A stretch of DNA of 64,000 bases from Craspedostauros australis. Its lineage: Eukaryota > Bacillariophyta > Bacillariophyceae > Mastogloiales > Achnanthaceae. Both the position numbers and the translations under genes were made by a program. Shown here piece by piece: positions 4,079 to 49,867 of this stretch; position 1 is the stretch's first letter, and each line of letters opens with the position of its first letter. The stretch spans positions 146,161 to 210,160 of the forward strand of contig JAMXDE010000069.1 in assembly GCA_026770025.1 (NCBI GenBank). The letters are read 5' to 3'. The notes below the pieces were generated by a model. That model was not told the origin of the DNA. It saw nothing but the letters and a program-made list of their open reading frames with translations, and did not search any database.

Positions 4079-4416
4079 GGTGGTGCGCTGCGCTTAGTGG
4101 CGGCGCGTCTGACTCGTACTCCTCTCTGCCTGCCTGCCTGCCTGCCTGTGATTGTATGGCACCATGCATACCATATAAGTACGACCTGCTCTGGAGTAGT
4201 TGCCGATCCCCCCATGCGCATGAATGGGTCTCTCCTGCTTGATGTTCCATCATCGCCACTCATCACCTCTCCCTCTCCCATCATCACGACGCCACCAAGA
4301 GCGCAGGATGGTCATTTTCCTCCTCTTCTTTCTCTGAGAAGAAGTCGAACAAGTCGAAGGCCGTGGACAAAAGATTCGTCGAGTCGTGGACAATGCGTGA
4401 AACAAAAGCGCACCTC

Positions 4417-5693
4417 TCATTCCGCAACGATCTCTCGCACACGTTGCACAATGCGGGCACCCCACACGCGTGATCCTTCTGCTTCGGGATGCAGCTGATC
4501 CGGCATGTAGAGCGTTGCGTTTGGGAAGATGGTGGAGGCATCGAAGTACGCGCTGCCGGCGTAGCATTGCAATCGTCGATTGACGTCATGGATCTGCGGC
4601 ATGAATTGCGGTTTGCGCGGCAGAAGGGAGTTGACGACGATGTGGGCGTTGGGTTGCAGACGTCGCAACTGTTCGACGATGGACAGGATTCCCGCCGTGG
4701 TAGCATCGGCCGAGCATTGGAGGAGACCCAGATCGTTCGTGCCGATCAGCAACCAGAATGCCTTGGTTTTGAGGCCTTGCAGCTGATCGTGCTCGAGACG
4801 GTAAGCGAGATTGGCGCACTGTACCATACGTCCAGGCAAAATATTGTATGTGTTTGTATTTGAATCATTCCCTTCAATCGCATGTGAGATGAACATAGGC
4901 GAGAAGGAACGCACAAGACATGACGAGACGCACATTGCAAGAAAGCACACACACTCGTACGCACCGTGTCCGCGGCAATGCCCAACGCCACACCGACGAT
5001 CTCACCACCGCCTTCCTTCGTGAACAATTGCCGGAACACCTGTGCGTTGCCTCGGAACCGTGGCATACGACGATTCATGCCGGTGCCCATCCAGTGTTCC
5101 GTGATGGAATCTCCCAGCAGGATGACATCGACCGTTCCGTATCGTCGCGTGGCATTCGCGGCAATGTCTTTCGTGGCTTGAAAGGCGGCCTTCCATTGTT
5201 CGGCGTTGGCGCGTCGGTGTTTTGGGATGGTGGGGTTGATGCAGTTGCAGGCACCTGGGTTGACGCAGGATCTCAGTTCCGGGTTGACGCGGAACGGCAT
5301 CATGAAATCGTCGATGCTTTGATCGATCTGTTGCATGTGGCATGCGTCGGAATGACTGACGCTGCGTGCATCTCCATGGTGATTGGTTGCTGATGCGATC
5401 GGTTTATCGGCATCTGCATTCATAGCTTTCGCAACATCCTGCTGCTGCCAGCCAGATTGGTGGATGGAAGCTGAGACCATGATGGCCGTGAGGAGCAGAA
5501 CGGCCACAAAGCACTTGTGCATGTTGCAAGATTTGAACGGTGGTTGTGGTTCGAAGAAGTGCGCGTGTGAAGGATCGTGATGATCCATAACAGCCGTGGT
5601 TGATGTTGCGACGTTCACATGATGCGTTGCTTCTTGCAACGTATTGCTATGGCGGTGCTCCTTCTTGCGTCTGCGACCGAATTGTGGATTCAT
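4417..5693 (-). CDS. Membrane-anchored SGNH/GDSL hydrolase (copy 2)
   Basis: Two exons, complement(join(4417..4818,4965..5693)), encode 376 residues; the 146-bp intron (GTGCGT...CAG) sits at exactly the same codon as in the copy at 2546-4078. The ATG at 5693 is chosen because the preceding in-frame codons look like leader; an upstream in-frame ATG at 5798 would add 35 residues. There is a His/Lys-rich tail, a membrane span at about 61-76, then a Cys-containing linker and the SGNH domain: GDSIT 194-198, GIAADT 238-243, GTND 269-272 and DQLH 350-353. It lacks the Asp-rich tail of the other copies. All catalytic residues are kept, so it is expected to be an active esterase or lipase of unknown substrate. 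It is transcribed away from the plastid-protein gene at 6312, across about 620 bp. Confidence 0.85.
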
Positions 5694-6605: not shown

Positions 6606-8932
6606 GCGGTGGCAGTGCGGTGCGATGCGATGTTGTGCAGTTCGGATGCGGAGAAGCGATGTGGGTGGAGTACTGATGCTTCCGCAGCACCTTCACGAGA
6701 TCTGGCAGCTGTGATTGCAGAAGTCCGAGCGATGCAACGCAAGGGCATGTCAGGGGGGATGATTCAGTTGCAGAGGAAGCAGAAGGAGATTTGCCCGTGA
6801 TTGGGCAACCGTGTCATCTCGACACGATCTTGTCAATGAAAGGGAGGAGCCGTGTGGAAGTTGAGGGAGACAAGCGTGCACTCTGTTGGAGAGCGCATTC
6901 GATTCGCTTGGACTTGATTGACACCTTGGCGCTTTCACAGTAATCTATTACACCAAGTTAGGATAACACACATGCGAGTACACAACACAGACTATTGCTA
7001 GAGGAGATGATCGTTGTTGTTGTGTGTAATTGTGCTTCTATTTCTATTGGTTTGTTTGGCGTAAATTGTTGGCTTCTGTGCGATCTATCTGGGGTGATTG
7101 GTATGTGATCAAAACTGGAGTATGTGCAGATGGGGAGCATGTGATTGCTGCCTCCCGATTGGCTGAATGGCTTGAATCATGGGAGTGTTCCTTCCCAAAC
7201 CACGCCATCGTTGCGTGGAGTGAAAAGAGACGGCCGTCGCTTGCTTTGGTAAAACTGTGGAGCGAGTGTGCTGATTTACATCTCGACGCACTTGCGTGGC
7301 ATGACAGGGATGCTGTCCGTCTTGGATTGTGGAAATCTGCGGCATGGTGTCATGTCTTCATCTGCTGCGGCTGTCGACCATCGATCATCGTAGGAGTGAT
7401 GCGATCGCGAGGCGTTCAACGTGATGCATGTGCTTGGTGACAGCGGCTGGACTCGGGCATTGTCGCTGATCAGGGAGACGTTCTCCATGGACACCTCCTT
7501 GAGGAGCTTGGAGAGGTATGGGCTCATTGATTGACACATGTTGATGATTGTATTGAAGAGGAGTGTATTGGTAGCTGGTGATTGTTGCTGTAGTTGTGGT
7601 TGCTGAGGTTGTGATCCTTTGCTTTTGTGATTGCAGAGAAATTATGAGCAGTTGATGTTTCGTGATGAAAGAGAGAGAGTCGTTGTCGCGTTCTCGTGCT
7701 TGCTGGCATTGCGTGGTTGTGTCTCTTCTCACCCTTGTTTGTCACGCAATAACACGGTTGTGGCTGGTTTGCAAAGCAGCGAGATAGCGTGTGGGACAGG
7801 AGCGGGAGTTGCGCTCGGAAAGTTCGTGTTTGTCACGATTTCTGTCTACAGCATCATGACACCGCTACCTCTGGGGAAGCGGCATAGGAACATCTCAGCC
7901 CGCAGAGCGTTTTGGACAGACAAAACTGAGGCGCGATATGAAGTCTTTGCTGACCAGAGAATGCTCCGCGACATTTGGGTCGCTCGTTCTCCTCACGTTT
8001 CATTGGTGCGTGGAGAAACCGACAAGAAATAGTTCCACCGCATCAGAGAATGACCACCGAAGAAGGAACACGGAACCTTGTTCCTCTTGACCCAACCCGT
8101 ATCCCGGGTTAATCCACCAAGCCATCTTCCGCATCAAGCCCTCAATCGCTCTTTGTCACGCTTCTTCACCTTCTGCGAATTGGGAGAGTACACTCTTTAC
8201 CATCGTCCTCATCCGCCCTTTCCTCGAGGACCTTGGATCAAACTACATTCGTGAACGCGTTGGGCGTCTGCGAAGACATTCTACCTCTTCTATTGTCTTC
8301 TTTCCGTGAAAACAAATCCAAACTGCTCGACAACAGCAGTCTATGTGCTGGGAGAACTCTATCGGTTTCTGGAACGAGAAAGTCACTACCGTTTTTGACA
8401 ATTCCCCCATGGGCCTTTTCCATCGAGCACGAGTATGAGGACCATTTCATGAAAACATGGAACTGGAAGATTAAGTATTTCGCCGACTGACGAAGATTCG
8501 GCGAGTTCGTCATGGTTGGAAGCGCAGGTCACAAACAAGCTGCACGTCTGATGTGGAAGCACGAAGAGTTGGAGAAGTCCAAGAACGAAACGGTACAGAA
8601 TTGACTCCTTCGAATGACACTCCGGCCGAAGAAGTGAAGCAAACAAGAACATCGCGACGAACGACGGTTTGTGCGGCGTTCTCGTTTCCACCATCAGCCA
8701 ACAACTCCGACGCTTTGCGTCTTCCCATCTCCACACACGGTACCACGAATACAAGACCATGACCAGTCATCACCACTTGCCATCATCACCAGCCACCCTG
8801 CTGCGTACCCCGCACCCACACAAGTAACAACGAAAGAAGGAAAGAACTCAAGAACGCAAGGGAACGACAGAAGCCAGAGAGAAGCAGCAAAGCGGGTGAG
8901 CAAGACGGTGCCACAAAGCGTCAAGGGACGCA
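6606..8932. other. Long intergenic region without a supported gene
   Basis: Apart from the possible 3' exon of the plastid protein at 6641-6800 (frame ending RKQKEICP), no frame on either strand shows a domain or coherent composition. Antisense-overlapping open frames at 8233-8776 are of equal quality on both strands, so neither is accepted. The last 200 bases before 8933 are A/C-rich and probably the leader of the next gene. Confidence 0.4.
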
Positions 8933-29678: not shown

Positions 29679-31148
29679 TCATGGATTGATCCTCTTGACA
29701 CGCAGCTTGGTTCCGATGTACTTGAATGTCATGAAGTACGAAAGCTCGCCTTCCTCCACAACCTCGAACTCGTACTTCGACAGCACCTTCGGCATCACGG
29801 AGTACATCTCCGCCTTGGCCAAAGTCTGGCCGACGCAGTTGCGGTTGCCATGAGCGAACGTCATCATGCTCTTCAGCATGTCGTTCGTCGCGGTCTCCCA
29901 GCGCTTCGGGCTGAACTCGTCAGGGTTTTCGAACACGTGCTCACTGCGATGCGGCAGCATGTGCGGGAGGAACACGTTGGAGCCGCTTGGAAGCTCCACC
30001 TTCGTGTTGCTGGTCTCATCGAGGAGGACGAAGTCGCGGTTGAGCTTCCGGCCCGATCCCAACGCGATGACGGGGGCAATTCGGTTGGACTCCGTGATGA
30101 CGTGTCTCATGCTCTCCTTGGCCGCCTCAGCATCATCGCCGAGCAACGATTTCTGCAGGTGCGTCATCGTCTCGGGATGCTTGGCCAACAACGTCACCGT
30201 GCTGGCCATGGTGTAACCCGTGGTATCGAAACCGCCAATGAGGAAGAGGACGACGTCGGAGATCTTCTCGAGCTCAGTGCGGTAGTGCGGATTGCTGTCG
30301 ATGAGCTTGATGGCGGTATTGTTGGTGGACTTGTTGGGGTTGTTCTGGTAGGCTCGCAGGATCTTCCTGCCAAATTCGGTGACGGCGTCTCCACATCGGC
30401 GGGCCTCGCGCACGGAGGGGATGAATGCTCCAAAGATCTTGCGCAGTGGGCTGAGGGACTGAGTGTAGGCGTACTCGCGGTACGCGATGAGGGAGTCGGA
30501 AGAGAACTGGTAGTACTCTTCATCGGTGGAGTTGTACTCGAAGCTGGCCTCCATGACGGAGTGAAAGACGAGCTTGGGGAACTCGTGGCCAGGATCGAAG
30601 GTCTTGTCGGTATCGGCGAGAGGCTCGAGGACCTCGTCGATGAACTTCTGCGCGTACTTGTTGCAGATGCTGTTCATGCGGCTGACCTCGCTGGATGCGA
30701 AGGCTGGCATGACGCCCTTGCGGAATGGTTTGCATCGTGGATCCTCAAAAGTGCGCGTGATGAGGGATGGACACCCGACTGCGCCGTCGAACGACTTGTA
30801 CAGAGCCCTGGACTTGTCCGTGGTCTTGTCCAAGAAGATCTCGCGCTGCGCTTTGGCATCGCCGACGATGTACAGGCCACCTGGCATGGGGATGTTGAGC
30901 TTGAAGATGGATGCGCCGGTGGCCTTTGCCGTGTTGAGCAAGAACCATGGCGAATCGCCTCCCATCATGGATGACATGGTCTCGAACATGCCGACCTTCG
31001 CGTTGGGCGGAGCATTCTTTGGTTGCGGTTTGTGGACGATGGTGTACAGCGCGAACGTGATCGCTGCGACGAGGACGGCCACGATGATGGAAGTGTCGGA
31101 CATGGAAGGGATGGAAGGGATGGACATGGAAGAGATGAGGTCGCTCAT
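29679..31148 (-). CDS. Cytochrome P450 monooxygenase
   Basis: The single-exon frame gives 489 residues from the ATG at 31148. An N-terminal membrane anchor (about 19-40, TSIIVAVLVAAITFALYTI) is followed by a basic, Pro-rich hinge (HKPQPKNAPP). P450 signatures are complete: I-helix FLIGGFDTTG with Thr for oxygen activation, ExxR in ITESNR, the PERF-like EFSPKRWE, and the heme-binding loop FAHGNRNCVGQ with the Cys438 ligand. It would sit on the ER with an NADPH-P450 reductase as electron donor. The substrate, perhaps a sterol, fatty acid or carotenoid, cannot be told. The frame continues upstream to 31328, but the added part is His/Thr-rich leader. A 443-codon antisense frame is a shadow. Confidence 0.88.
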   Translation of the reverse strand: MSDLISSMSIPSIPSMSDTSIIVAVLVAAITFALYTIVHKPQPKNAPPNAKVGMFETMSSMMGGDSPWFLLNTAKATGASIFKLNIPMPGGLYIVGDAKAQREIFLDKTTDKSRALYKSFDGAVGCPSLITRTFEDPRCKPFRKGVMPAFASSEVSRMNSICNKYAQKFIDEVLEPLADTDKTFDPGHEFPKLVFHSVMEASFEYNSTDEEYYQFSSDSLIAYREYAYTQSLSPLRKIFGAFIPSVREARRCGDAVTEFGRKILRAYQNNPNKSTNNTAIKLIDSNPHYRTELEKISDVVLFLIGGFDTTGYTMASTVTLLAKHPETMTHLQKSLLGDDAEAAKESMRHVITESNRIAPVIALGSGRKLNRDFVLLDETSNTKVELPSGSNVFLPHMLPHRSEHVFENPDEFSPKRWETATNDMLKSMMTFAHGNRNCVGQTLAKAEMYSVMPKVLSKYEFEVVEEGELSYFMTFKYIGTKLRVKRINP

Positions 31149-33037
31149 GGTGTCTGATGTTGTTGATGATGTTGTGGTGATTGTGGTGTTGTGATTTTGT
31201 GAGGGATGGAAACCGTGATGGGAGTATTGATACTCGTGCGTTGGTGGATGGTTGTTGGCTTCGGAGTGATTGCGATTGCGGATTATGTCTTGATGAATGG
31301 TGCTGGGGAATGATTCCTTTCGCTGCACCCGTATCTACCTGCAGAAACATGCCTGAGGTCGCGTCCTCTCAGAGGCTGTGGATGCGCCAACCCGCCGATG
31401 ATCATCATGACAGCGGTGCTCCCACCGATCATGACCCATCGCGCAATCAGCTCAACTGAACTGAACGCAACTCAACTCAACTCAACTCAACTCATGTCAC
31501 TACCAAATCCAGACAGAATTTTGACAAGCGGATGTGAACAGGCGGAGGAGGAGGAGACAGAGATGAAGGGAGAGAGGAAGAGGGTGCTGCAGAGGACTCA
31601 AGAGAGAGAGAGAGAGAGTGACGATGTCGGCAGTCTGATCCATTTCGTGTCAGAGCCAATCGCTCGTTTGATGGACCATTCGCCTTTGGCACAATTTGTC
31701 TTGTGTGACGCGCAAAGACATGTCCAGAATCTGCACAAGCAACTCTGGACAACCAGGATAAATGATGGTAGCGATGGAGCAGAATGATGAGGTTGGACTG
31801 ATTAACTCACTGTGTCAGCTACTTGCTGTGCCTTGTTTCTGTTTGGAGTTGTACCCGGAGTGCACAAACACCACTATGTCTGATAAATCTCAGCGTTTTC
31901 GCACAAGTCACACGGCATTCACTGGTCGACTTGTTCGTGACACGTCGACACAAAGGACAGTCCCAACATGACGGTTCGTGTTTGGTTTGGAAGGACAATC
32001 GAGTGAGGCATGCGTCATTTGATGTCCGAGTTTGGCATCAGCAGAAAGGATGAATGAGACGCCAGAAAGGATCAATGTAACAACAACCGCGACGTGCAAG
32101 TCCAATCATGATGGATGCCATTGTTGTGCTTTCGAATTGATTCCATCCGGCGATACCTTCGACATCGCCGATACATGAGCATGAATGATCAGTTGTCCCT
32201 TCGTTGTCATCTTCTTCTCGTGGCGACATGTTGTGGACTTTGCGAAATCGGCCGTCTTCCTCTGTTTGTATTTGGTTGGCCAGGAGCAACAGCAGCATCA
32301 TGCAGATCAACCACTGCATGCCGATATTATCGAGCGTAGTAGACATGGAGTTGATCTGGACTACTCCCGATGGACATGGCAACAGAGAGCACGAAGAGTC
32401 AACTTTCGCACGATGGCTGATTGTATTGAAGCCTCTGTGCGGTTGTATATCTGTTTGTCTTGAAGTTCGAGTCTTGGTTCTAAATTAGAGCACACTCATT
32501 GTATTCCAATATCTACAATAGAGGGACACCCTATATGGTCATTGATGAAGACAGACAATCACAAACAGCCATTCACATGTAACAAGACATACAACCGTGC
32601 AGACGACTGACAGCCACTCAGATATTCAACCTGTCGCACAAGAAGACGAACCGAAGGGACATCACCCTTACGACCCTTGCGAGTATGCCCACCAGTTGAT
32701 CTTCAGACTGGTGGAAAGGACATTCCTTATTGCATGGTATTATAGATCTTTCATGTCACTCTGTTTATCGCTTGGGCCTGCTTTTCGTTGGAGCGCAGCG
32801 TCATTGTTTTGTTGATCGCTGTGCCGTGTCGGTATTTGTGGACATCCGCGGGGCATGCGCGGGGCATATGGATACTGGAGCAGCGGCGACAGCGCAAGGC
32901 ATCAGCATTGCCGGCGGCAGCGCGTCAAGAGAACTACACAGAATAGAATAGACCATGGAGCATGTTGAATTTGAATAGAATTGAGTAGGCTCTAAATTCA
33001 TTTGTGCAACATGCCCTGCACAGCGACATCTCCAAAA
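31149..33037. other. Intergenic region with simple repeats, no supported gene
   Basis: Contains (CAACT)n at about 31452-31494, a GA-rich tract near 31545-31618 and A+T-rich blocks at 32510 and 32940. The frame at 32597-32815 starts with a plausible hydrophilic stretch (QEDEPKGHHPYDPCEYAHQL) but then turns into noise; it may be a lone exon, without further support. Confidence 0.4.
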
Positions 33038-34541
33038 TCAGGAGTTGTCCAGAAGCGACCGACCATCGCCAGCATTGTTGTTGTTGTTGTTGTTGTTGTT
33101 TCGATTATCAATCTCCAGAATTCGCTTCACAATCTTTCTGCCCCAAATCTTGGAACCTTTCCCATCCGGATGCAGGCCATCCACCATGTGCTTGACTTCT
33201 CCGCTCGTCGTGTTCTGAAAGATGGACGTCGCATCAAAGAATTCGACGGACCGCGTCAAGCTCGCGTAGCACTGCAACCGCTCGTTGATCTCATGTGTGG
33301 GTGCGTGGAGGTCCTTGCCTCTGCTGGGCAGGATGGAATTGATGACGATCGTGGCGTTGGGCCGTTGCATGCGCAGTTCCTCCACGATGGCGATATTGCC
33401 CGCGACGACGGCGTCGACGGAGCAGTGATCAGTGCCCAGATCGTTCGTGCCGATGAGCAACCACACGATTTTCGTCTGCAGAGTGCCTAGTCCATTATTT
33501 CGCAGTCGGAACAGCAAGTTGGAGCACTGCGTTCGAGTGTGCATATTTGCGATGTGCGAATGGATGGCATGGGAAGTGTGATAGTAGGTGTCGCAAGAAC
33601 ATGGCGCAGGGAAATGGATACGCGTGTGTCAGCATGTACATTCGGTGCGGGAACAGTGTCAAACAGAACATAGATGCAGTGCAGCGGACTGGGCATGGTA
33701 CCATGCGCACTGCCATACTCGCCATTTCCAAACCTCCCAACGCACAAATCCCCTCCAGCACAACGCGATACCACAGGCACGCACACGAATGAACAACGCA
33801 GATACATCTCGCAATTCCGCTCACCCGTTCCGCGGCGATTCCCAATACGACGCCGTCCACTTGGGCGCCGTTGTCCATGTTGAAATAATCCTGGAACACC
33901 TTAGCGTTGGGCTGGTAGGTGGGGCTCGGTTGGCCGAAATCGGTCCCAAGCCAATGTTCCGTGATGGAATCCCCCAGCATCACGACATCCACACCCTCCG
34001 CTCCAAACTTCTGCGCCGCGTCCTCGGCATCCGCCTTCGTCTTTTCGAATGCTTTGTTCCACGGTTTCACCAATTGTTCCATTTGCAGAATGCGCGGCGT
34101 CGTGGGATTGAAGCACCTGCAGTCGTTCTCGATGATGGGAAGACACGACGTGAAATTGGCATCGTCCCAATACAGCTCCATCAACTCCTCAAAGGTCTCA
34201 CCGGACTCCGTCTCGGCGCACGAGGGCACGAAGACCGATTCGTTTTCTGGCTCCTTCGACGAAAACACGCCATCCGTCATCGTCATGCTGCCGGCGTAGA
34301 TGATGCCCACGAGGATGGGCAGCACCACGGTGACCGTCAGGACGGATGTCACGATGAGTCGGTTGCTGGAGGATTTCCATATCGACAGAGCCGGCGGATT
34401 GTCGGTGAAGACGCCGTCGTTGTCGGCACTCTCGCTGTCATCATGATCTGGCGGCTCGATCTCCAACACGGAGGTCACCAGCGGTGCCATGTCATCATCC
34501 TCATTTTCTGCATCATCATCGGGAGCAAACGCGGGCGACAT
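33038..34541 (-). CDS. Membrane-anchored SGNH/GDSL hydrolase (copy 3)
   Basis: Two exons, complement(join(33038..33526,33825..34541)), encode 401 residues. The 298-bp intron (GTGAGC...CAG) lies at the same codon as in the copies at 2546 and 4417. The cytosolic tail is very acidic (DDDAENEDDDMAPLV, then VLEIEPPDHDD), matching copy 1 in layout, with a membrane span at about 62-83. Catalytic blocks are GDSIT 190-194, GIAAER 234-239, GTND 265-268 and DGLH 355-358. The second block has Glu-Arg where copies 1 and 2 have Asp-Thr. The C-terminus ends in a poly-Asn run (about 382-390) encoded by a GTT/AAC microsatellite. Activity as a lumenal or extracellular esterase is likely; the substrate is unknown. 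It lies about 28 kb from the tandem pair. Confidence 0.85.
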
Positions 34542-35070
34542 CTCTTTTGTTGCGCGTTGTGTGCGTGGTGTGTCGTTGTCGTTGTCGTTAGAGATGACGT
34601 GTGAGCGCGGATGATTTTAGATTAGTGTGAATTAGTGTGAATTAGTGTGGATGAACATGCGTTTGCGATGGCATCATCGTCACCATCGTCGATGCCGACA
34701 ATCGTGATGGAATTGGCACAATTGGAAGTGGAGAACTGGACAGTCTTTGCATTTTAGGTTCCATTTTAATCGTGCTTATGACCCATACCACGACTCAAGT
34801 CAAGCGAACCTATGGAGGCAGTCTAGATCGCAGAAATCTGCATGCATTGGCATGTCTCATTGCATGTCAGCTCCTCGTATTCTGCTCTAAGCTGTTGCTC
34901 TATCATATTCTGGTGGCTCTATGGTATATTGCATGATATCATATGCTCTACTCTATTTACTATACGACTAGGAATCATGATGTTTGTGAGGGTGTCTTCG
35001 CAGAAGTTGGTTGGAAACAGGGTGTCACGAGTCACCAATGTATTGGAGTCATCCTTTCCTCTCTCTCTCT
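34542..35070. other. Intergenic region, no gene seen
   Basis: Contains three copies of an 11-bp ATTAGTGTGAA unit at about 34621-34650 and a GAGTCACCA-rich stretch before the hydrolase 3' end. No coding signal. Confidence 0.4.
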
Positions 35071-35586
35071 CTACTTGGAGCTCGAGAAGTGTGCCAGCGC
35101 CATCTTCGAAATGGATTCCGCCACAACTTCCGGTTGCTCCTCGTAGATCTGGAATGCTGCCTTGGCGATCTTCACGAGCGGTTGCGCATTGATCGTCTTG
35201 ACGGTGTCCTCACCGACTCGGATGGGACAGATCTTGTCATCGATTCCATGCATTACAGTGATTGGGACAGATGCCGATCGGTCCACATTCACGGTCGCGA
35301 GAATGTCCCTCGCCTCGTCTCGTGTCAGCCACACCATCGCGGCGGAGTAGTGCACCGCCATGCTCTGATCGTTCTTGTTGCTGTCGATCTTTGCCACCTC
35401 CAAGACTTCCGGCTTGGTCGACGGCGAGAATCCCATCTTCAAGAACCCCAACGTCAGCAACGGATGCAACCACGTGAGAAGCCACACGGGAAGGATCTTG
35501 AAGATCATGGGCCCGCCATTCTTCAACATGGGATGCACACCACGGAATCCCGTGCTCGAAAAGAGGAAGCCGGCAGTCGCGGCACG

Positions 35587-35592
35587 GATATC
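35587..35592. repeat. Left target-site copy GATATC
   Basis: The same six bases occur at 40856-40861 directly beside the other end of the transposon. Removing one copy restores the host gene frame. Confidence 0.75.
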
Positions 35593-35720
35593 CATAAAGA
35601 GAGATTCTGTCTGGGGAGACCAAAAATGGCCATTTTGGGCTCAGGAGACAAAGTTACCCGGAGGTTCGCCAAAATCCGGTCTGAGGAGACAATTTTCAGT
35701 TCCACGTGATAAATCTCCAC
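35593..35720 (+). repeat. Left terminal and subterminal repeat region of the transposon
   Basis: It begins CATAAAGAGAGATTC, the partner of the right end. Inside are GGGGAGACC (about 35612), CAGGAGAC (about 35642) and GGTCTGAGGAGACAATTTT (about 35678). These spaced, similar motifs are probable transposase-binding sites. Confidence 0.65.
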
Positions 35721-35983
35721 GATAGGATTTTTCGGTCGAATACTTCGACTAAAAGAAACTCTGCCAGCTCTTCGTTCTGACATCTTCTCCTCCAAGATTT
35801 TCTTCATCGTCATTGTTTCTTCGCTTTCCTCCAGATGGCAACAACCCTCCCTCTCCAACCTCCTTGCCTGCTGTGGTTCATTTCATCCCATCATCAACCT
35901 CGCACCTCCTTGCTTATCATTCGCAGCATCCCCCATACTGCCTTCTTCTTCCAGCTTGCCTTCTTCGATACGTCACCTTCATC

Positions 35984-38900
35984 ATGGCATCTTCTCTTCC
36001 ACCTGATGCTCCCAATGCCAATGACAACTTGCCCACAGCTTCCACTCCAGTTGCAACGACCGTCCATGGCACCGTCTCTCCATCCCAGCAGCTTCATCCC
36101 TTTGGACAAGTTTTGGATGATGGAATGGGTGATGCAGGCAAACACACCCATGAAGAAGAACGAGATGGCATCTGTGTCAACAGTGATGACGAGGGTGCAG
36201 TGCCTACAGTGGTGCCTCCAGATCCTGTTGGCGATTTTGGAGTCCAACCGTGCTCGCTTCCTGGCTACAGCCATTGCATCGTCCTCCCTCCAAAGAAGGG
36301 GAGTAGGGAGATCTCTGTGGAGTGGAAGGTGCTCTCAGCCTACGAGCATGCAACAAAAGTGACTGTTGGAGAAGCACACAAGCTCGCTCTCCTTCATGCA
36401 AAGGAAGAGATTCGTTCACTGCGAACAGCTGTCTTGCAGCGCTTCCCCAAGAGTCCTCCTGGGTCTCCACCATACGTGCCAACACCCCATGACTTGATCC
36501 ACGATGTGCTGGGCCCCACATCTCCCATTTTCATCCGTGCATTTGGCCCAAGTGGGCTGGGTTTCTCATATCCTGAGTACATGGAGTTCCTCTATGCCAT
36601 CACATCACAGATGGTGGAAGGCTGCACCGTTCGTCGGCTCTACGATGGCGGCAACACTACCACGCTTCCCAGCTTTCCCACCAGACAGCACTACGTCAAT
36701 CTCTGGGACCGTATTCGACGCAATGGAAACCCTGTCTCTCGGAATGGCCATCGCTTTGTTTGGACCGAATTGGAAAGTGCTTTCAACTTGACGCTTGAGA
36801 TTCTTTGTCTTCGTCATCGTTGCCCGAATCGGATCGTCACATTGGATGATGACAAGGTCCATTGCAGCAGCCGTGCAGAGAGCAGCTATCTGCTTGGCAT
36901 GAGACATACTCATGCAAATCGTAATGGGTAAGTGACGAACAGCATTGTGTGTTTTGTTGCAGAGGGGTGGCATCTCCATTTCATATTTCAATTCCTCACC
37001 CCAGGTCTCCGTCTCGTTTTGGTCTTCTGCATTCCTTCAGATTAACCCTGAACACTCTTGTCCAGTCTGCTTCTGGACTTGTTGTGGGGTTGGCTGCTTG
37101 CCGAGATGGGTTCGATGACGACACCTATCGGTTGTTCACCCAACTAAAAGAACCAGATGGTTCTTTTCGAAATCTAACCCTCATGACAGATCGAGGATAC
37201 AACTGCCACAGCACTACCGCCTTCCTCACTACCAGGGGTGCCAATCTGGAGGGTACACACATGCGAGCTGGATACCTACCATTCACCTTCGGCCCATCCA
37301 TTGGCAAGGGTGCACTCCAGATGAATATTGGGAGGAAGGGGCCAAGGATGGTGCATAGCGCTGTCACCAACAGCATTGGCAAACGACAATTGACATGCTA
37401 TGGATACCGACTTAACGAACAAACTGTACTTGCACTCTCCACAAGATCGAGTGGCTTCGAGTGGGACCTCACCCTCAGCAACGCCAGTGACCAACAAAAG
37501 TACCAAGACATGGTGGAGAACAAGCATGGGAACAATCAAAGATCCCCACACTACCCACACTTCTTCCAAACATTCACTGTCAATCCAACACGATCGTCGG
37601 CAGTCAGAGCTGCCATATCCCAAACTCCCCTTGGCACAACCGGTGTTGTGGCTGCCGCATCCAAGAATGTCAAACAGCGTTGGGCAGATATGGTGTGGGA
37701 TCTGCCTGTGGATGGACTCACCTGTGGCCAGGGTGACCATCTGTGGTTCGTCCACCGCCGCTTCGCGTTCACGAGCACCTCCACCTACAGCATGATACAG
37801 AAGGTGCTTGAAAGCGGAGAGTGGTGCAACACCGACAATGCCACCATATTCAATCAAACTGCATGGGAGTGCATTGGCCGCTACTTGGGATATGATGTGC
37901 TTGGTCGGAAGGCGAAGTACCACAATGCGTTGCAAGCAGAAAAAGCGAGATTGCGCGCACTTGATTTATACTCCAAACTCACAACTCCCACCTTCGATTC
38001 CCGTCATGTTGAAATTGCACTTCTCTCCTCTCTCCGTGACGACGCCCCTGAAGAGGATGCCTTCCCTGACAAAGACTTCATCGAACTCATGGTTATGTTC
38101 TACCGCAGCAAGGCCCAGCGAAGCAGAGCCACACGATGCAAAATGCTCCGCACCATCCTCGCTGATGACGACAAGGTTCGACGGCGATTCGTGGCCATCA
38201 GCGACGCCTCCCTCAAGAAAGACCTCAAGGCTCGTCTCCCCAAAACCAATGTGACGAAAATGCCACGAGAGAAGGTTGTGGAGAGATTGGTTGCCCTGGG
38301 GATGAAGGAGATCGAGCAGGAGCCCGACCATCCATCCAGTTTCCAGGCGGGAAGCACCACTTCAGAGTGGATGCACAAGCTTGACCACGACCTCACAACT
38401 CTCATGTTACAATCGTGGTTCATGAAGTCGGTTCGGGGCAAGGCCGGAAAGCTCGCCAAGCTGGGCCACAAAAACGAAGCTCCCCTCATGAAGCAGGCCC
38501 TCCACTGTGTTGGAGTGGGCGGCGAGGGAAGGCAAGTGAAGGCGACGTACCAAGTGGGGGTGGTGCGAAACACCGATGCACCGTACGCCCGCGCCTCCGT
38601 CGACTTCCTCGCGATCGTCGGTGATCCAGAGGACGACAGCGACGATGAAGTCTTTGTTGTGGAGATCAAGACTCGGGCAACGACAGACACAGAAGATCTC
38701 GAAAGACGGCACCAGCGGAAGGCCGATTGGGAGCATGGGACGGAGGGAAAGAGTCATGTGTTCGTGCATCTCCAAGACGACAAATGGAGGGCATTGTTCG
38801 AAAAGAAATCAGAGATGATTCAACTGCTTCATCATGCCTTCGTCTTTGGGGTGACAGGTGCAATGATTGTAATTGGTACGTTCAAGCATGAAATGGATGG

Positions 38901-40398
38901 AGCTCCTGCCATGAATTTCGAAAGTCGATTCGTGGTGCTCACTCAAACTGTTCTTGCGTTTCTCCTCTGATCCACTCGATCCCACCTCCTCCTACCATCA
39001 GGTGATGCAACCGCTAACACCATAAGATCAATATCCACACAATTCAAACCTGATCTACTTCAATCATATGGAATTGTGCTACAAAATCTGTATGAGCTGA
39101 AGTTGGAGTTTGCATACGCGGACTCCGCTGCTGCATCCCGCGAGGCAGCGTCAGGCAAGACCCTGCGAAAGCATCTGAATTCGAAACGCAACCCCCACAG
39201 GGGCTCAACCGGGGGGCGACACATTGCGGCATTGACAGAAGAGGATGTATTCCACCAATTGATGATATGGAAGGCATGCCAGGAACTACCAATGCCGGTG
39301 CCAAAGGTTCACACCTTGGTTCCATCGTTTGTAGCTCGTTGGAATTCATTCAAGGGCGGCTCCGATTTAATCACCAGAATGGTGAGGCAGCACAAGGTGC
39401 AGCCGCCATTCGCAACCTTCCAGTGCCAAGCTGTGGTACGGATTGTGGAAGTCATCCTTCTGTTTCTGCACAAGCTAATGCACTACTGTTGCACAGACGA
39501 TATCCACACAAACAAAGACCTGGAGAACGCAACGGTGCTGCAGACCTACCGTGACATGCTGAATCATCGCAGCAGTGTTGCTGATTCGTTGGAAACATTG
39601 CGAAGGGCATTCGGAGTCATCGTCGCCCAAGCCGCTGGCAGCAACAGAGAAGCAGGTGATGACAGCGAATGCGCAAACTGGTTTATTCAGGGAGCAATCA
39701 ACAACACAGGAGACACAGATTCGGATACAGACAATCAAATCTACGATGGTAGACCAACTGTTGAAGGCGAGGAGAGGGACGGAAAGAGCATCCGGAACCT
39801 GCTGTCTGGGAATCCAGCTGCCCCAACACCCGCCATGGCTGCGCTCGAACGACGTCTCCGCACGGGCAGCCATGAGCCCATCTTTTGTGAAAACGTGAAG
39901 AAACCCTGCGTCGTATGTGGGGTTGTAACGAAATGGATGTGCATGCAGTGTCACTTTTTCGCCTGCGTGCCTCCCACTGCAAATCACAAGAGATGGGGAG
40001 TTGCAAATGGAGTGCATACCAGCATTTCAATGTCAAATCTACGAAAGAAGGCGAACGAACGAATCATTGCAAGCAACACATGTTTCCGAATGCTCCACGG
40101 AAGCAACAGATCATGGACAAGGAAGACCAAGGCGGATTACACTGAGTGGAGTGCGAAGCAACCAGACAGGAAAGGAGGGAAGCGCAAGACTCCATCAGCA
40201 GTGCAAACAAGCAAAGATATCCAATCGAGCCAAGGAAGGAAACGAGCGAAACCCTCATCCCAGACACCTGCTGAGACTTCACCAGCACCACAGAGACGGC
40301 GGACGCGCTCGGAGACAACTCCGCAACGACCGCGAACGCGCGCAGCAGCTCAACAAGGAAAGTACAGCCATGGGAATGGGTCGAGATGTAACATATAG
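35984..40398 (+). CDS. Transposase: DDE/RNase H-like with an internal PD-(D/E)XK nuclease domain
   Basis: Proposed join(35984..36927,37041..38875,39002..40398), 1,391 residues. Introns are GTAAGT...TTCAG (acceptors at 36962 and 37004 also keep frame) and GTACGT...CATCAG, the latter removing the only in-frame stop (38968). Residues 1-200 are Pro/Ser-rich then helical. First catalytic Asp: VTLDDDKV (about 286-292); second: LMTDRGYN (Asp365); third: WNSFKGGSD (Asp1048), like the GGVD of piggyBac. Between the last two, residues about 810-930 hold ASVDFLAI (Asp836) and VVEIKTRA (Glu856, Lys858), a PD-(D/E)XK nuclease core of the lambda-exonuclease/YqaJ kind. A Cys-rich finger follows (CVVCGVVTKWMCMQC, about 1230), then a basic tail. 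It would cut and rejoin the element's ends; the role of the second nuclease is unknown. Confidence 0.8.
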
Positions 40399-40767
40399 CA
40401 AAGTAATAACACACAAACGTCCATCAAATACGGGGTAGTGAATCGTTCCTGTGAAGAGGCGTGGTCACAAATCATTGTGATGCAAGAGGAAGAACGCTGC
40501 GGAACGATCATGTCCTGTGAAGAGCGTGGAGGACATGGATAAGCATGCAACGAACATATGTATACGAAGAACTGTGATGAGATGCAAGTGGCTCAATGCA
40601 TCCAGGAGAAGCATTGAGCCATAGTAAATAGGAGGGCATGCCAGGATATTGTGAGAAATCGGAAAAAACGATATGAGGGGGGAAAAAAGTGAGCGCGAAC
40701 AAATAGTTTTAGTCGAGGTGGTCGAAGAAAATGCCATCGCGATAAAACGTCGCGTTGCTTGATTTTG

Positions 40768-40855
40768 GTCTGAGGAGACCAATTTTGGCACCCCTCGAAT
40801 CCGCTTGGTCTCCTGAGACAATTTTGGACTTTTATCGTGGACGAATTTCTTTATG
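40768..40855 (-). repeat. Right terminal and subterminal repeat region of the transposon
   Basis: It ends GAATTTCTTTATG, the inverse of the left end. It carries GGTCTGAGGAGACCAATTTT (about 40768) and GGTCTCCTGAGACAATTTT (about 40806), matching the motifs near the left end. Confidence 0.65.
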
Positions 40856-40861
40856 GATATC
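40856..40861. repeat. Right target-site copy GATATC
   Basis: This pairs with 35587-35592. Being palindromic, it leaves the exact target length (2, 4 or 6 bp) ambiguous. Confidence 0.75.
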
Positions 40862-41278
40862 GGGGAAATCGCGCACGAGCTTCAGGATGGTTTGGGCCGC
40901 GTAGGAATGACCCATGAAGAGGATCGGCTTGCTGAGGCCGACCCGCGCCGTGATAAGACCCGCGATGTCGCGTTCGATTTCGATGTCGGTGAAATCCGAG
41001 GCCGACGGCGATCCCGGCGTGCGACCGCAACCCAGTTGATCGAACATCCAGACGGCCATCTTGGTGGACGGCGACGCGGCGAGAAGATCTGCCAAGGGTT
41101 CCCAAACTCCGCCGAATTGCTTGCAGGATCCCATCATGCCGTGCGCGCAAACGAGGTTGATGGTGGTCTCAGCGATGTTATCCGTTCCGATGAGGAGACA
41201 TCTTGCGAACATGGAGCGTCCTGGACGGACCTCGGTAATGGCGGAGAAGTGTTCGTGGATCATTGTGGATGTTGTCAT

Positions 41279-45766: not shown

Positions 45767-48391
45767 TCATTCGAATGTTCTCGATGTATCAAGGTACGAC
45801 TTCTCATGTTCTCGTTGCAAGTCGGCCTTGATGTTCTTGGTGAATCCGTCGCTTGTGTTCTGCTCGGATTTGACGAAAATGATTTCGATGGTCTTGTTGG
45901 TTACCATGTTCCTCACGTAGTGATGGCGCACGTCGATGTGCCGCGATCGTTGGGATGTTGATGGGTTCTTGGCGATGAAGATCGCTCCGATGTTGTCCAC
46001 GCGGACCTTGATCGGTGTCTTCACTGGGACGCCCACACTTTCGAGTAGCTGCACGACAAAGAAGATCTCCTTTGCTGCTTTGGAAAGGGCAACGTATTCT
46101 GCTTCGGATGAGCTGAGTGTCACAGCCTTCTGTGCCTTGGATTGCCAAAGGATTGGTACTTTGCACAGGTATAGGATGAACCCTCCTACGCTGATTCTCG
46201 TGTTCTTGTCTCCTGCATATTCGCTATCACAGAAGAGCTCCATGTCCCAGCTGTCGTCGTCTGGACGTGCTGGATGGATCTTCAATCCATAGTCCTTTGT
46301 ATCGATCACATATTTGATGATCCAATACATCTCCTTCATTGCGGCCTTGGTGGGCCCGATCAATACCTTGGAGAGTTCCCTCACAGGGTTTGCGATGTCT
46401 GGTCGCAAGTGCTTGATGAGGAAGAGTAGCATACCGACACCTTGGGGGTATTCGGCATGTTCTTCCGGTCCGACCTTCTGCAGTCCGTTATCTTCGGATG
46501 GTTGCACGATGATTTGACCCGGGGTTCCCGGTGTCCCATAGCGTTGCATCTTCTCAACCTTGGTTCCGAACTCTTCGATGAGATGTCGGATGAGGTGTGG
46601 TTGACGCAACGTTGCTCTGGTCTTGTCATGGTTCAGTTCGATGTTGCAGCTGAGGTAGTCTCCGAGTCCGCGCTCGATTGTTACCTTGAACTTGCTGCCT
46701 TGGATGTCCTTCAGGAATGTCTCCAATGCCTTGGAGTCTCCGCAGCAGAAGCAATCGTCCACGTAGATGGCCACGATCATGCTTCCTTCGTTCGTCTTCC
46801 TGTAGAACAGGCACGGGTCCGCTGCGCTCTGTTCGAAGTTGATATTCTTGAGGGTCGACACCAACATCTTGAACCATTGCCTGGCGCTCTGCACAAGTCC
46901 GTAGATTGGCTTGTGTAGGGTCAGGGCTTCGTCTGGTTGATGATCCATCCCGTTGGGACAGTTCATGTAGATCTCCTCGTCGAGGTCTCCGTGTAGGAAT
47001 GCCGTTACGACATCGACGAGTGCGCAGTCCATCTTCTTGATTAGCATGATCACCATCATGACTCGATATGTTACATCGTGGATGACGGGTGAGTAGTGTT
47101 CTTGGAAGTCTACTCCTGCGACTTGCGAATAGCCACATGCAACGAGTCGCGCTCGATGTGTGCCGTCACGCTTCAACTTGAAGACCCATTTGCACTTGCA
47201 GCATCTGCGGCCGCGTGGGATGGCGTCTCGTTTGATCTTGCTGTACACCTTGCGTGTATCCATGGAGCTGAAATCTTTCTTGATGGCTGCTCGGTATCCC
47301 TTTCGATGGATGGGATCCGGATGATTGAACGCCCCATCGAACGTCGTCGGTTCGATGTGCTTCTCGGATTCTTCGTTCTGGTCCTGAATCGACAGTCCGA
47401 TGTCGATCGCTGGTATCTCGGCAACGATTGCATTCATCCCGTATAGTCTGTTGGTGCTGTGATGGATAACCTCTGTCTCTTCTATTTCGTCTACGATTTC
47501 ATCATCATCTGTGTTCTTGTTGTCATCACTCAGTTTGTCAGCTAACTTGTCGCTGAGTTTGTCGGTCTCCTCGTTTGATGATGATTTGTTCTCATCACCT
47601 CGTTCCTTTTGACCTGGTCTGTTGTTGTCTGCAAGCGCGCACAGTGCTTTGGGAATCTTCTTCCCTGCAGTTGCCTTGGGATTGTTCTGTCCCTTCCTGC
47701 CTCTTGCTTCGTGGCATCGGAGTCTCTCCTTTCTGTCTATGTCACGCTTGCTTGGTTTGGTTGGTGGAGGTCTTGATGGTGTACCACGCGCAGGCCTCGC
47801 TGGTGTGTTCAGAGGAGTGATGCCCTTGTCATCGTTGGCTTCGTCGCCGGATGGTAGGATCTCGTCATCCTCAGGGTCGGACTCGCTCCGATCTTCCTCG
47901 TTCTCGAGCGGTTGGGTCGCTGCTTCCTTGTCCTCATCATTTCTGTCCGATAGGATGTGATACTTGTTCTTGTTGGCAAAGGATACTCTCCTTGGTTCTG
48001 TCGTTTGATGCATTGCCGTCCTTGGCGTTGCTCCCTTCCGTCCAATGGTTGTGAAGCTATCTGCATTCGTCATTTCTGAATCGTTGAGTGTGTTTGGTGC
48101 TTGCGCCCAGCCACAGAACTGTCCATATGATTGGTTGAGCCATTTGATGTCGCAGGAACAGACCAGTGACTTGGTCGATGGTCTGTACATGTTGTACACT
48201 CCTGATGCATGTTGGTGTGCATATCCAATGAACACCATCTCTTCTCCTCTATTCTTGAGCTTGGCGGTGATCCCGCCGTAGGTAGTCTTCACGACACCCA
48301 CTTCTCCAAATGTGCGGAGTGCATCTGCGTATGGTGGATTGCTGTCAAAGAATTGGCAATGGCAGTGGCAGTGCTTGCAGCTGCTGCCCAC
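45767..48391 (-). CDS. Copia reverse transcriptase-RNase H frame (with integrase C-terminus)
   Basis: The 874-residue open frame begins with the end of integrase (NPPYADALRTFGEVGVVK, EEMVFIGYAHQHASGVYNMY) and a charged low-complexity linker. The RT follows (WVFKLKRDGTHRARLVACGYSQ, VDVVTAFLHGDLDEEIYMN, and the catalytic YVDD in MIVAIYVDDCFCCGD). The RNase H comes last (MELFCDSEYAGDKNTRISVG, TLSSSEAEYVALSKAAKE, IKVRVDNIGAIFIAKN, HYVRNMV). All catalytic Asp/Glu of RT and RNase H appear present. In an active element this would be part of a longer pol; its true upstream joins are broken, so this frame alone lacks a natural start. Confidence 0.8.
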   Translation of the reverse strand: MGSSCKHCHCHCQFFDSNPPYADALRTFGEVGVVKTTYGGITAKLKNRGEEMVFIGYAHQHASGVYNMYRPSTKSLVCSCDIKWLNQSYGQFCGWAQAPNTLNDSEMTNADSFTTIGRKGATPRTAMHQTTEPRRVSFANKNKYHILSDRNDEDKEAATQPLENEEDRSESDPEDDEILPSGDEANDDKGITPLNTPARPARGTPSRPPPTKPSKRDIDRKERLRCHEARGRKGQNNPKATAGKKIPKALCALADNNRPGQKERGDENKSSSNEETDKLSDKLADKLSDDNKNTDDDEIVDEIEETEVIHHSTNRLYGMNAIVAEIPAIDIGLSIQDQNEESEKHIEPTTFDGAFNHPDPIHRKGYRAAIKKDFSSMDTRKVYSKIKRDAIPRGRRCCKCKWVFKLKRDGTHRARLVACGYSQVAGVDFQEHYSPVIHDVTYRVMMVIMLIKKMDCALVDVVTAFLHGDLDEEIYMNCPNGMDHQPDEALTLHKPIYGLVQSARQWFKMLVSTLKNINFEQSAADPCLFYRKTNEGSMIVAIYVDDCFCCGDSKALETFLKDIQGSKFKVTIERGLGDYLSCNIELNHDKTRATLRQPHLIRHLIEEFGTKVEKMQRYGTPGTPGQIIVQPSEDNGLQKVGPEEHAEYPQGVGMLLFLIKHLRPDIANPVRELSKVLIGPTKAAMKEMYWIIKYVIDTKDYGLKIHPARPDDDSWDMELFCDSEYAGDKNTRISVGGFILYLCKVPILWQSKAQKAVTLSSSEAEYVALSKAAKEIFFVVQLLESVGVPVKTPIKVRVDNIGAIFIAKNPSTSQRSRHIDVRHHYVRNMVTNKTIEIIFVKSEQNTSDGFTKNIKADLQREHEKSYLDTSRTFE

Positions 48392-48402
48392 AGGCCATGC
48401 CT

Positions 48403-49867
48403 CTATTTGTTGTTGAGTTGTGCTCCGTTGAGCATGGAGCGGATCTTGGTGTAGAGATACGCAAACTTGCGTTCTACTCTACCATTCCGCTGTGGCGTGT
48501 TGGACGCCATGGACTCGAATTTTGCATTCAGTCCTGCATCGATGAGAGTATCCTGCGTGGATTTGTTCTCTCCGCTGTTATTGCCTTGGAAAATGATTTG
48601 TTGATCACCTGTGTGTGACTTGATCGTCTGCATGAATCGTTTGATACCCTGGTTGGTCCCTCTTGTTCTTCAGAAAGAAGCTCCAGCAGTAGTCCGTGAA
48701 GCCGTCCACGATCAAGGTCCAGTAGCGTTTATCTCCGAAGCCTATGTGTTTAGTGTAACTGATATTGATAAAGAGGCGTTCGCCACAGCGAGTCGCTCTT
48801 GGGATTCTAGTCTTTGAGATGTTCTTCACTCTCGCATTCGCAACAGCACAGTCGCGACACACCAGCATCTCGCCGATAATCTTCCATCCGTATTGAGCGG
48901 CTGTCTGCTTCATGGTCTCGAGTGGTGCGTGACGGAGCATTCAATGCAAGTTCACCGCGCTCACCTCCTTGGATGGGCTCTTGATGATGGCTGTGGAAGC
49001 CTTGTCATCCTCAGTTGGCATGATGGGATGCATCTGCACTCCTGTGATGAATCCGTTGGATGTTGGCAAGATGCAATCGAAGATGATCTTCTTCCCAGCT
49101 CTGTTGACGATGTCCATCAGAATGCCATTGTTTCCAATCTGGTAACTGTTGTATAGTGCCTTGTTTGTAGAGAAAAGGTTCACCACCATCTTGGGTGTGT
49201 ACTTCACATGATCGAGCCGGAAAATGTGGCCAGTGTTGTCGCGCTGCTTGACCTTCAAGCGGATGGATCCGATCTTGGGAGAGTCCAGCTTCGTGCTGTC
49301 TCCCACTTGGATGAAGGACTTGATGTGCCGCACGTTGAAGAGGCTGGCGTCTGAGTTCATGATGTTACACGAGGCTCCGCTGTCAGCAAGCCAGGTGTCC
49401 TTGTTGACCTTGTCCTTGTACTTGGTGCTCAGCTTGTGAAGCTGTTCCATGGCAGCCGCTGCCATGTCGTCGTCGTGATCTTCTTCGTTCCCGTCGTCCA
49501 TCCTGTGGTAGTCCATGCCGTCGTAGTACGGTTCTCCGACTGCTGGAGTCATGTCTTCTCGGTGAGTTCCTGTCACCGAATCGCATGGCATGACTTGTGG
49601 TCGCTCGCGCAGGAGTACCTGCATACATCCTCCAAGGACGTAGTGCAATTCCGTCTCTGGAATGAGCTCGTCTTTCCTCCAACAGCCGGTTGAGGATCAC
49701 TGTGTTGGCGAGAATCTCTTCGATTGATCGGAAATTGTTGGACAGTATGGTGCCAATCACGCGCACCCATATGTGTTACAGTCCCCCGTTGATCATCGCT
49801 GGGAAGAGACGCATGCCTGCTACCATCACGGCGTCGTGGATGAGCTGTTGTTGCATTGTCTCTGCTG
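48403..49867 (-). pseudogene. Copia protease-integrase segment, frameshifted
   Basis: Protease is visible as WLADSGASCNIMNSD (about 49400) and the pre-integrase region as KYTPKMVVNLFSTNKAL. In the integrase zinc finger the frame hits a TGA at 48941-48943 (VNLH-stop-MLRHAPLET), with the rest of the HHCC motif (LRHAP... CRDC) continuing in the same frame. The core shows YWTLIVDGFTDYCWSFF. A shift near 48650 leads to GNNSGENKST, where the expected catalytic Asp is Asn, and then PQRNGRVERKFA with the Glu. Another shift joins the RT frame. At the 5' end (about 49690-49790) the frame with TILSNNFRSIEEILANTVIL overlaps the end of gag in another frame. Confidence 0.75.

What the first reader, a model, noticed from the sequence alone, without database searches (positions are those of the whole stretch)
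35984..40398. A transposase with a PD-(D/E)XK nuclease domain built into its DDE catalytic domain
Seen: after removing two GT-AG introns the three frames join into one protein. VTLDDDKV, LMTDRGYN (Asp365) and FKGGSD (Asp1048) look like a DDE/D triad, and SVDFLAI...VEIKTRA (Asp836, Glu856, Lys858) sits between the second and third Asp. Known: some RNase H-fold transposases have insertion domains at this position, but I know of none whose insert is a complete restriction-type nuclease. Inference: the second nuclease could cut the non-transferred strand, trim ends or act at the target.
Basis: partly seen in the sequence, partly recalled or inferred. Interest (0 to 1): 0.92.

Follow-up and report, generated by a model that had tools for sequence, protein, structure and literature searches.

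The report
piggyBac-like transposase with inserted exonuclease
A jumping gene in this eukaryotic genome, with relatives including one labelled as from a diatom, encodes a transposase of the piggyBac kind into whose cutting domain a second complete DNA-cutting enzyme, resembling phage lambda exonuclease, has been built, suggesting that the ends of its DNA are processed in a way not seen in piggyBac itself.

Summary
The window carries a complete 5,265-bp transposon (35592-40856) flanked by 4-bp ATAT duplications. Its one gene has two introns and encodes 1,391 aa. Ten diverged family members in the same genome share both intron positions, and 17 homologous proteins, one labelled Skeletonema menzelii, share the domain order as far as each extends.

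It works like piggyBac but targets ATAT, not TTAA, so I file it as a piggyBac-related lineage. Some Dada transposons carry a 3'-5' exonuclease after the second catalytic Asp, a precedent; a lambda-type insert in a piggyBac-type enzyme appeared in none of the paper searches made. Nuclease function is inferred: most likely processing of 5' (non-transferred) strands.

The parts
35588..35591 (.). left target-site duplication ATAT
   Evidence: single ATAT in two empty sites of another copy
35592..35600 (+). left terminal inverted repeat CCATAAAGA; first base of the element
35609..35690 (.). left subterminal imperfect palindromes GTCTGRGGAGAC at 35609 and 35679, candidate binding sites of the C-terminal zinc domain (inference)
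35984..36927 (+). exon 1, residues 1-315 (codon 315 split): N-terminal helical part and first catalytic strand, D288 (36845-36847) in TLDDDK
36928..37040 (+). intron 1 (GTAAGT..CAG)
37041..38875 (+). exon 2, residues 315-927: rest of the first RNase H half with D365 (37189-37191), three-strand insertion domain, most of the nuclease
37708..39252 (+). inserted YqaJ/lambda-exonuclease-type nuclease domain, residues about 538-1010 (spans intron 2; limits approximate)
37744..37776 (+). nuclease motif W550-x3-R554-x4-T559-S560
   Evidence: 24 of 24 rows
38464..38478 (+). nuclease motif GHxNE, E794
   Evidence: E794 28 of 28 rows
38602..38604 (+). nuclease D836
   Evidence: 28 of 28 rows
38662..38670 (+). 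nuclease E856-x-K858
   Evidence: 28 of 28 rows
38821..38835 (+). nuclease motif Q909-x2-H912-H913
   Evidence: 28 of 28 rows
38876..39001 (+). intron 2 (GTACGT..CAG)
39002..40398 (+). exon 3, residues 927-1391 (codon 927 split) and stop: end of nuclease, last catalytic helices, C-terminal zinc domain
39352..39366 (+). K1044-G-G-S-D1048, third catalytic Asp on a helix-GG-helix as in piggyBac
   Evidence: 27 of 27 rows; helices 881-889 and 891-902 of the P0005 model
39907..40098 (+). C-terminal Cys-rich domain: C1229 C1232 C1240 C1243 C1248 C1287 H1292
   Evidence: 24 or 25 of 25 rows at each position
40768..40819 (.). right subterminal imperfect palindromes GTCTGAGGAGAC (40768) and GTCTCCTGAGAC (40808)
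40848..40856 (-). right terminal inverted repeat; last base of the element
40857..40860 (.). right target-site duplication ATAT

Best explanation
This is a cut-and-paste DNA transposon, recently active to judge by near-identical copies, whose transposase descends from, or is sister to, the piggyBac transposases. SHOWN (by alignment and by predicted structures of homologues): the RNase H-type core is interrupted after its fifth strand by a piggyBac-like three-strand insertion domain, and then by a complete YqaJ/lambda-exonuclease-type nuclease with its conserved catalytic residues; the chain then returns to the helix-GG-helix that carries the third Asp and ends in a Cys-rich domain. The element inserts into and duplicates the palindromic tetranucleotide ATAT. 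INFERRED: the DDD site cuts the transferred strand and joins it to ATAT, through a hairpin intermediate as in piggyBac. The second nuclease, held inside the same complex next to flanking DNA, acts on the 5' (non-transferred) strands. It either trims the 4-nt 5' flaps left at the new site or resects the 5' strands at the donor break. I put the architecture at about 0.93 and 5'-strand processing as the role at about 0.5.
Against: No biochemical or RNA evidence exists here. Profile-profile comparison with piggyBac was weak: for the segments 100-480 and 255-480, 1 of 400 shuffles reached the score, but the reversed profiles scored almost as high (28.95 vs 29.39; 23.67 vs 24.28). The segment 255-560, the second catalytic half and the Cys-rich part were reached by 222, 86 and 21 of 400 shuffles. 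No protein matched PF13843, the Pfam family of classic piggyBac. The Pfam hits to YqaJ and DDE_Tnp_1 whose scores were seen lie under the curated cut-offs (P0007, L030). Of five AlphaFold models the best was kept (mean pLDDT 81.8; the others 70.9-75.6). Polarity 5' to 3' is borrowed from the lambda exonuclease fold; Cas4, MGME1 and herpesvirus nucleases share that fold. An exonuclease that ate the 5' overhangs would spoil the seamless repair that a palindromic ATAT would otherwise allow.
Confidence: 0.6

Rival explanations
1. TnsA-like division of labour: the inserted nuclease makes the second-strand (5') cut at each transposon end, so that no hairpin is formed, while the DDD site cuts and joins only the 3' ends.
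For: TnsA, which cuts the 5' ends in Tn7, is a separate nuclease that works with a DDE enzyme (PMC9527255, passages). The nuclease follows the insertion domain, which contacts target DNA in piggyBac. The active site is invariant.
Against: The nearest folds are lambda-type exonucleases (TnsA not being listed is no evidence by itself). The piggyBac-like three-strand insertion domain and helix-GG-helix are kept, and piggyBac makes its double-strand breaks itself, through hairpins.
Confidence: 0.2
2. The nuclease resects the 5' strands of the donor break so that it is healed by homologous recombination from a sister or allelic copy, which restores the element at the donor site and turns cut-and-paste into net gain of copies.
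For: Lambda-exonuclease-type enzymes are recombination nucleases (established knowledge; phrog_434 'RecE-like recombination exonuclease'). The family is abundant: 109 matching stretches, pieces and not copies, in this genome, and deletion derivatives that lack the nuclease core have multiplied (11 places).
Against: No donor footprints or gap-repair products were looked for beyond three joined-flank searches. Internal deletions, which gap repair can make, are also common in other transposons.
Confidence: 0.22
3. The nuclease domain is a non-catalytic structural or DNA-binding wedge.
For: Inserted domains in other DDE enzymes often only shape DNA (established knowledge).
Against: E794, D836, E856, K858, Q909 and H912-H913 are each the same in 28 of 28 proteins, although the nuclease core is only 23-29% identical between the window and P0001, P0003 and P0007, and the nuclease part has dN/dS 0.14-0.18 between intact copies.
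Confidence: 0.04
4. The three reading frames belong to separate genes or a pseudogene and the domain order is an artefact of joining.
For: 7 of the 11 full copies carry 1 to 3 in-frame stops after splicing, and no RNA data were available.
Against: Four copies are intact, intron places are shared by 10 diverged members, homologues recorded as single proteins exist, and selection keeps the frame.
Confidence: 0.02

Closest known systems
piggyBac and piggyBat transposases (PDB 6x67, 9c0f)
   Same: RNase H core with DDD, helical N-terminal part, three-strand insertion domain, KGGxD on a helix-GG-helix, C-terminal Cys-rich domain, palindromic 4-bp target
   Different: Target ATAT instead of TTAA; a nuclease of roughly 470 residues lies between the insertion domain and the third Asp; D365 to D1048 are 683 residues apart against 101 for D346 to D447 in piggyBac; no PF13843 match
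Dada transposases of Laccaria bicolor and Ectocarpus siliculosus
   Same: A complete nuclease domain placed after the second catalytic Asp of a DDE transposase (PMC3706591, passages)
   Different: Dada carries a DEDDy 3'-5' exonuclease of DnaQ-like type, has a DDE triad and targets small RNA genes; here the insert is of the PD-(D/E)XK, lambda-exonuclease type and the target is ATAT
ISL2EU (PHIS superfamily)
   Same: Transposon that encodes a DDE transposase and a YqaJ nuclease (PMC4482050, passages)
   Different: In most ISL2EU the YqaJ domain is in a second ORF, the TSD is 2 bp (AT) and the transposase carries a THAP domain; here it is one protein with a 4-bp TSD
Tn7 TnsA + TnsB
   Same: A second nuclease works together with a DDE transposase, cutting the 5' ends (PMC9527255, passages)
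   Different: Two proteins in Tn7; TnsB is of another transposase family (recalled); lambda-exonuclease fold here
Lambda exonuclease / YqaJ / RecE / LHK-Exo
   Same: Fold over 208 of 225 residues and an invariant E, D, ExK, Q motif set
   Different: Stand-alone recombination enzymes; here split by a helical insert and built into a transposase
KolobokP (His-Me nuclease) and KolobokD (DEDDh exonuclease)
   Same: DDD/E transposons that carry an extra nuclease (PMC9587614, abstract and section 11)
   Different: Other nuclease folds and another superfamily; the position of the nuclease in the KolobokD proteins was not read

Membership tests
piggyBac superfamily | RNase H-type catalytic domain with the piggyBac arrangement (N-terminal helical domain, three-strand insertion domain) | tested here: met
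piggyBac superfamily | DDD triad, third Asp in KGGxD on a helix-GG-helix | tested here: met
   D288 18 of 18, D365 19 of 19, KGGSD 27 of 27 rows; helices 881-889 and 891-902. Distances between the Asp could not be measured
piggyBac superfamily | TTAA target and duplication | tested here: not met
   ATAT in 11 of 11 full copies, 24 of 25 left ends, and single ATAT in two empty sites
piggyBac superfamily | Match to Pfam PF13843 above its cut-off | tested here: not met
   No match for the window stretches or for any of 45 rows at E 0.1; classic piggyBac ORF L040 of the same genome matches at 6.4e-49
piggyBac superfamily | Sequence-profile relationship | tested here: inconclusive
   1 of 400 shuffles reached the score for two segments, but the reversed profiles are nearly equal; other segments no better than 21 to 222 of 400; 3 of 300 in an earlier comparison
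piggyBac superfamily | C-terminal cross-brace Cys-rich domain | tested here: inconclusive
   Seven conserved Cys/His; P0005 lacks this part, so its fold was not compared
piggyBac superfamily | Seamless excision through 4-nt hairpins | not testable with these tools
   needs biochemistry
YqaJ / lambda exonuclease family | PD-(D/E)XK fold of the lambda-exonuclease type | tested here: met
YqaJ / lambda exonuclease family | Conserved E, D, ExK and Q catalytic residues | tested here: met
   28 of 28 rows at each; the role of each residue in lambda exonuclease is recalled
YqaJ / lambda exonuclease family | Pfam PF09588 match | tested here: inconclusive
   2 of 45 rows, best 5.6e-4; the one score seen (P0007, 18.3 bits) is under the 22-bit cut-off
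YqaJ / lambda exonuclease family | 5'-3' exonuclease activity | not testable with these tools
   needs purified protein
Dada | Insertion into small RNA genes; in some members a DEDDy exonuclease | tested here: not met
   Target is ATAT, in the window inside a protein-coding frame; the nuclease is of PD-(D/E)XK type
ISL2EU | 2-bp AT duplication and YqaJ in a second ORF | tested here: not met
   4-bp ATAT, single joined gene

The most novel reading that the evidence does not exclude
A separate lineage of eukaryotic transposases, sister to piggyBac, in which a recombination-type 5'-3' exonuclease is a fixed part of the transpososome. It cuts and joins at ATAT and at the same time resects the donor break, so that donor repair by homologous recombination is coupled to transposition inside one enzyme.
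Probability: 0.2. Interest if true: 0.88.

Novelty: new variant of a known kind. Interest (0 to 1): 0.74.

Why it matters
piggyBac enzymes are widely used tools whose seamless excision rests on self-complementary 4-nt overhangs. A natural relative that keeps a palindromic tetranucleotide target (ATAT) but has built in a DNA-end nuclease makes testable how target choice, hairpin processing and donor repair are coupled. It also shows that the region after the second catalytic Asp of DDE transposases has accepted whole nucleases more than once (Dada with a 3'-5' enzyme, this lineage with a lambda-exonuclease type). Eleven full-length copies, the ten others 95.5-99.9% identical to the window's and four of the eleven with open frames, suggest recent activity.

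Tried and rejected
Tried without result. Pfam on the window exons: no match except a chance ArfGap at E 0.58. PDB by sequence with A2: only chance hits, mostly zinc fingers, best E 0.91, and none with A3. Viral-contig scans with A1, A3 and the window exon 2: no relatives. Search for TTAA or ATAT ends of the classic piggyBac loci L035-L040: no convincing pair, so the target of the classic elements in this genome is unknown. Empty sites for the L010 and L011 copies: none; for L011 the two flanks match different repeats. In one search ATAT ends were found for 5 of 12 loci; the other 7 (L023 of the window's own family, L025, L029, L031-L034) gave none, for some perhaps because the fetched stretch was short. 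The three homologue searches scored only the 7,984 to 7,995 candidates sharing most words, so more relatives may exist.

Considered and rejected. Separate genes or pseudogene (see rivals). Nuclease limited to 800-930: the fold match begins near or before the W550 motif. Filing as piggyBac proper: TTAA and PF13843 were tested and not met. 'No known transposase has a complete nuclease there': Dada is a precedent.

Not in print: ten paper searches were answered (with no paper; one search failed and is not counted). Judged by titles and starts of abstracts, none lists a piggyBac-type transposase with a YqaJ or PD-(D/E)XK insert. Some lists were cut (one search shows 20 of 104), and only openly licensed PMC papers are held. 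Academ transposons are recalled to carry a Cas4-type nuclease; no paper on that was read.
Full report
OBSERVATION. D365, D836, E856, K858 and D1048 lie where stated. In the ranges searched, 5 GT-AG combinations keep the frame open for each intron. Without RNA the chosen pairs are supported three ways. In ten diverged members of the family in the same genome (about 30-58% identical) the best open model has introns of 94-179 bp at the same two positions; the models were picked by score against the window protein, but the unguided tblastn matches also break or change frame near residues 315 and 927 in most of them. Homologues P0001, P0003, P0006 and P0007 are recorded as single proteins that run through both positions. 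Intron 2 of near-identical copies differs by up to 13.5% while the exons differ by 3.3-4.3% (window vs L014).

THE ELEMENT. The gene lies in a 5,265-bp transposon, 35592-40856, with TIR CCATAAAGA and ATAT on both sides. It interrupts an antisense reading frame; joining the flanks over one ATAT gives one continuous frame, and two diverged paralogues (63 and 59%) run through that point uninterrupted. The frame looks like an alpha/beta hydrolase (recalled motif, no family search made). In the genome there are at least 11 full copies of 5,262-5,265 bp, the window's included; the ten others are 95.5 to 99.9% identical to it, and all 11 have ATAT on both sides. Of 25 exact left ends in the genome, 24 are preceded by ATAT. 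For the copy in L009 two paralogous empty sites, 97 and 96% identical to the joined flanks (218 and 220 bases), hold a single ATAT, so the target is ATAT and the duplication is 4 bp. Of twelve other loci tested, five (members about 43-58% identical to the window) show ATAT|CCAY ends; seven gave none. Deletion derivatives that lack element bases 2992-4688, and with them the nuclease core and most of the C-terminal part, are also flanked by ATAT (4 of 4 with both ends in view). Both ends carry imperfect palindromes GTCTSNNGAGAC, placed like the internal repeats that the piggyBac Cys-rich domain binds (PMC7351741, passages); their binding is inference.

RELATIVES. Of the 7,995 candidates scored from 5.8 billion proteins, one matched the window protein (P0001). 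Searching with P0001 and with a profile gave 16 more, one named by its source as Skeletonema menzelii, a diatom (recalled). No relatives were found in viral contigs in three scans.

SEQUENCE CONSTANCY. Over 28 proteins (window, ten family members, 17 homologues): D288 18 of 18, D365 19 of 19, D1048 27 of 27; W550, R554, T559 and S560 24 of 24; E794, D836, E856, K858, Q909, H912 and H913 28 of 28. In the most diverged members L031-L034 the nuclease core is the best-kept region compared, 44-46% against 23-36% for the N-terminal part and first catalytic half and 33-38% for the last; in L024, L026, L027 and L029 the last catalytic segment is better kept than the nuclease core. Between the window copy and the three other copies with open frames (L012, L014, L015) dN/dS is 0.167, 0.197 and 0.200, and over the nuclease 0.141, 0.175 and 0.175. 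Pfam YqaJ is found in 2 of 45 rows (best 5.6e-4), DDE_Tnp_1 in 2 of 45 (best 1.3e-4), RecE-like phrog_434 in 2 of 16 (6.5e-5). The scores seen singly are under the Pfam cut-offs (P0007 YqaJ 18.3 of 22; L030 DDE_Tnp_1 18 of 23).

EVIDENCE AGAINST A SIMPLE PIGGYBAC FILING. No PF13843 match, although that family is common in the same genome (160 matching stretches at E up to 10). Profile comparison with classic piggyBacs was weak: 1 of 400 column shuffles reached the score for the segments 100-480 and 255-480, but the reversed profiles scored nearly the same; the segment 255-560 was reached by 222, the second half (1000-1130) by 86 and the Cys-rich part by 21 of 400; the nuclease as negative control by 95 of 200. 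An earlier comparison had 3 of 300. The kinship thus rests on the predicted fold, motif order and element structure. The target is ATAT, not TTAA. I therefore say that it works like piggyBac and is probably related to it, and do not file it as piggyBac.

MECHANISM. Shown: one protein, two conserved active-site sets, ATAT target, repeated insertion, selection on both parts. Inferred: as in piggyBac, the DDD site nicks at the transposon 3' ends, forms and opens 4-nt hairpins and joins the 3' ends to the tetranucleotide, leaving 4-nt overhangs (PMC7351741, passages; that these are 5' overhangs is established knowledge). The inserted nuclease, whose closest fold is a 5'-3' dsDNA exonuclease (polarity recalled), follows the insertion domain, which contacts target DNA in piggyBac. 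The likeliest role is therefore work on 5' ends: flap trimming at the new site, or resection at the donor break. A TnsA-like second-strand cut is the main alternative (TnsA: PMC9527255, passages). None of these was tested, and no excision event was observed; the empty sites show the target before insertion, not excision.

KNOWN RELATIVES OF THE IDEA. Dada transposons of Laccaria and Ectocarpus have a DEDDy exonuclease between the second catalytic Asp and a DxxH motif (PMC3706591, passages). Most autonomous ISL2EU carry YqaJ in a second ORF (PMC4482050, passages). KolobokP and KolobokD carry other nucleases (PMC9587614, abstract and section 11). None of the ten answered paper searches listed a piggyBac-type transposase with such an insert, judged by titles and starts of abstracts. 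The Ectocarpus repeat survey lists piggyBac but does not name YqaJ (PMC12477816, passages). Novelty: a new variant of a known kind.

Noticed in passing
window 40861-41278 (-) and 35068-35591 (-): Host reading frame (looks like an alpha/beta hydrolase, recalled motif) interrupted by the element; uninterrupted paralogues at C43 (63%) and C15 (59%). A place near the end of contig C69 carries the same insertion junction.
   Followed up: partly
window 29682-31334 (-): Cytochrome P450 gene (PF00067, 1.5e-38).
   Followed up: no
window 33041-33628 (-): GDSL-type lipase/acylhydrolase frame (PF13472, 3.3e-11).
   Followed up: no
window 45770-48478 (-): Retrotransposon frame with RVT_2 (2e-42), of Copia type by recall.
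   Followed up: no
L019-L022 and other places: A lineage of internal-deletion derivatives (element bases 2992-4688 missing) that lost the nuclease core and most of the C-terminal part yet multiplied (11 places covering query 1-515/516 at 91-93% identity); probably moved in trans by full copies.
   Followed up: partly
L022 around 2267-2270: Two deletion derivatives stand head to tail and share a single ATAT.
   Followed up: no
L011 around 2290-2400 and 7665-7775: The two flanks of this copy belong to different repeat families, which suggests insertion at a repeat boundary or recombination between copies.
   Followed up: no
L031:1462-4197 and L034:1912-4971: These members have long Ser/Thr-rich low-complexity stretches ahead of the nuclease core, so the helical insert region seems to tolerate large expansion.
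   Followed up: no
genome G000, C25:34761-35165: A YqaJ-type frame (PF09588, 1.6e-17), possibly stand-alone and a relative of the inserted domain; not compared.
   Followed up: no
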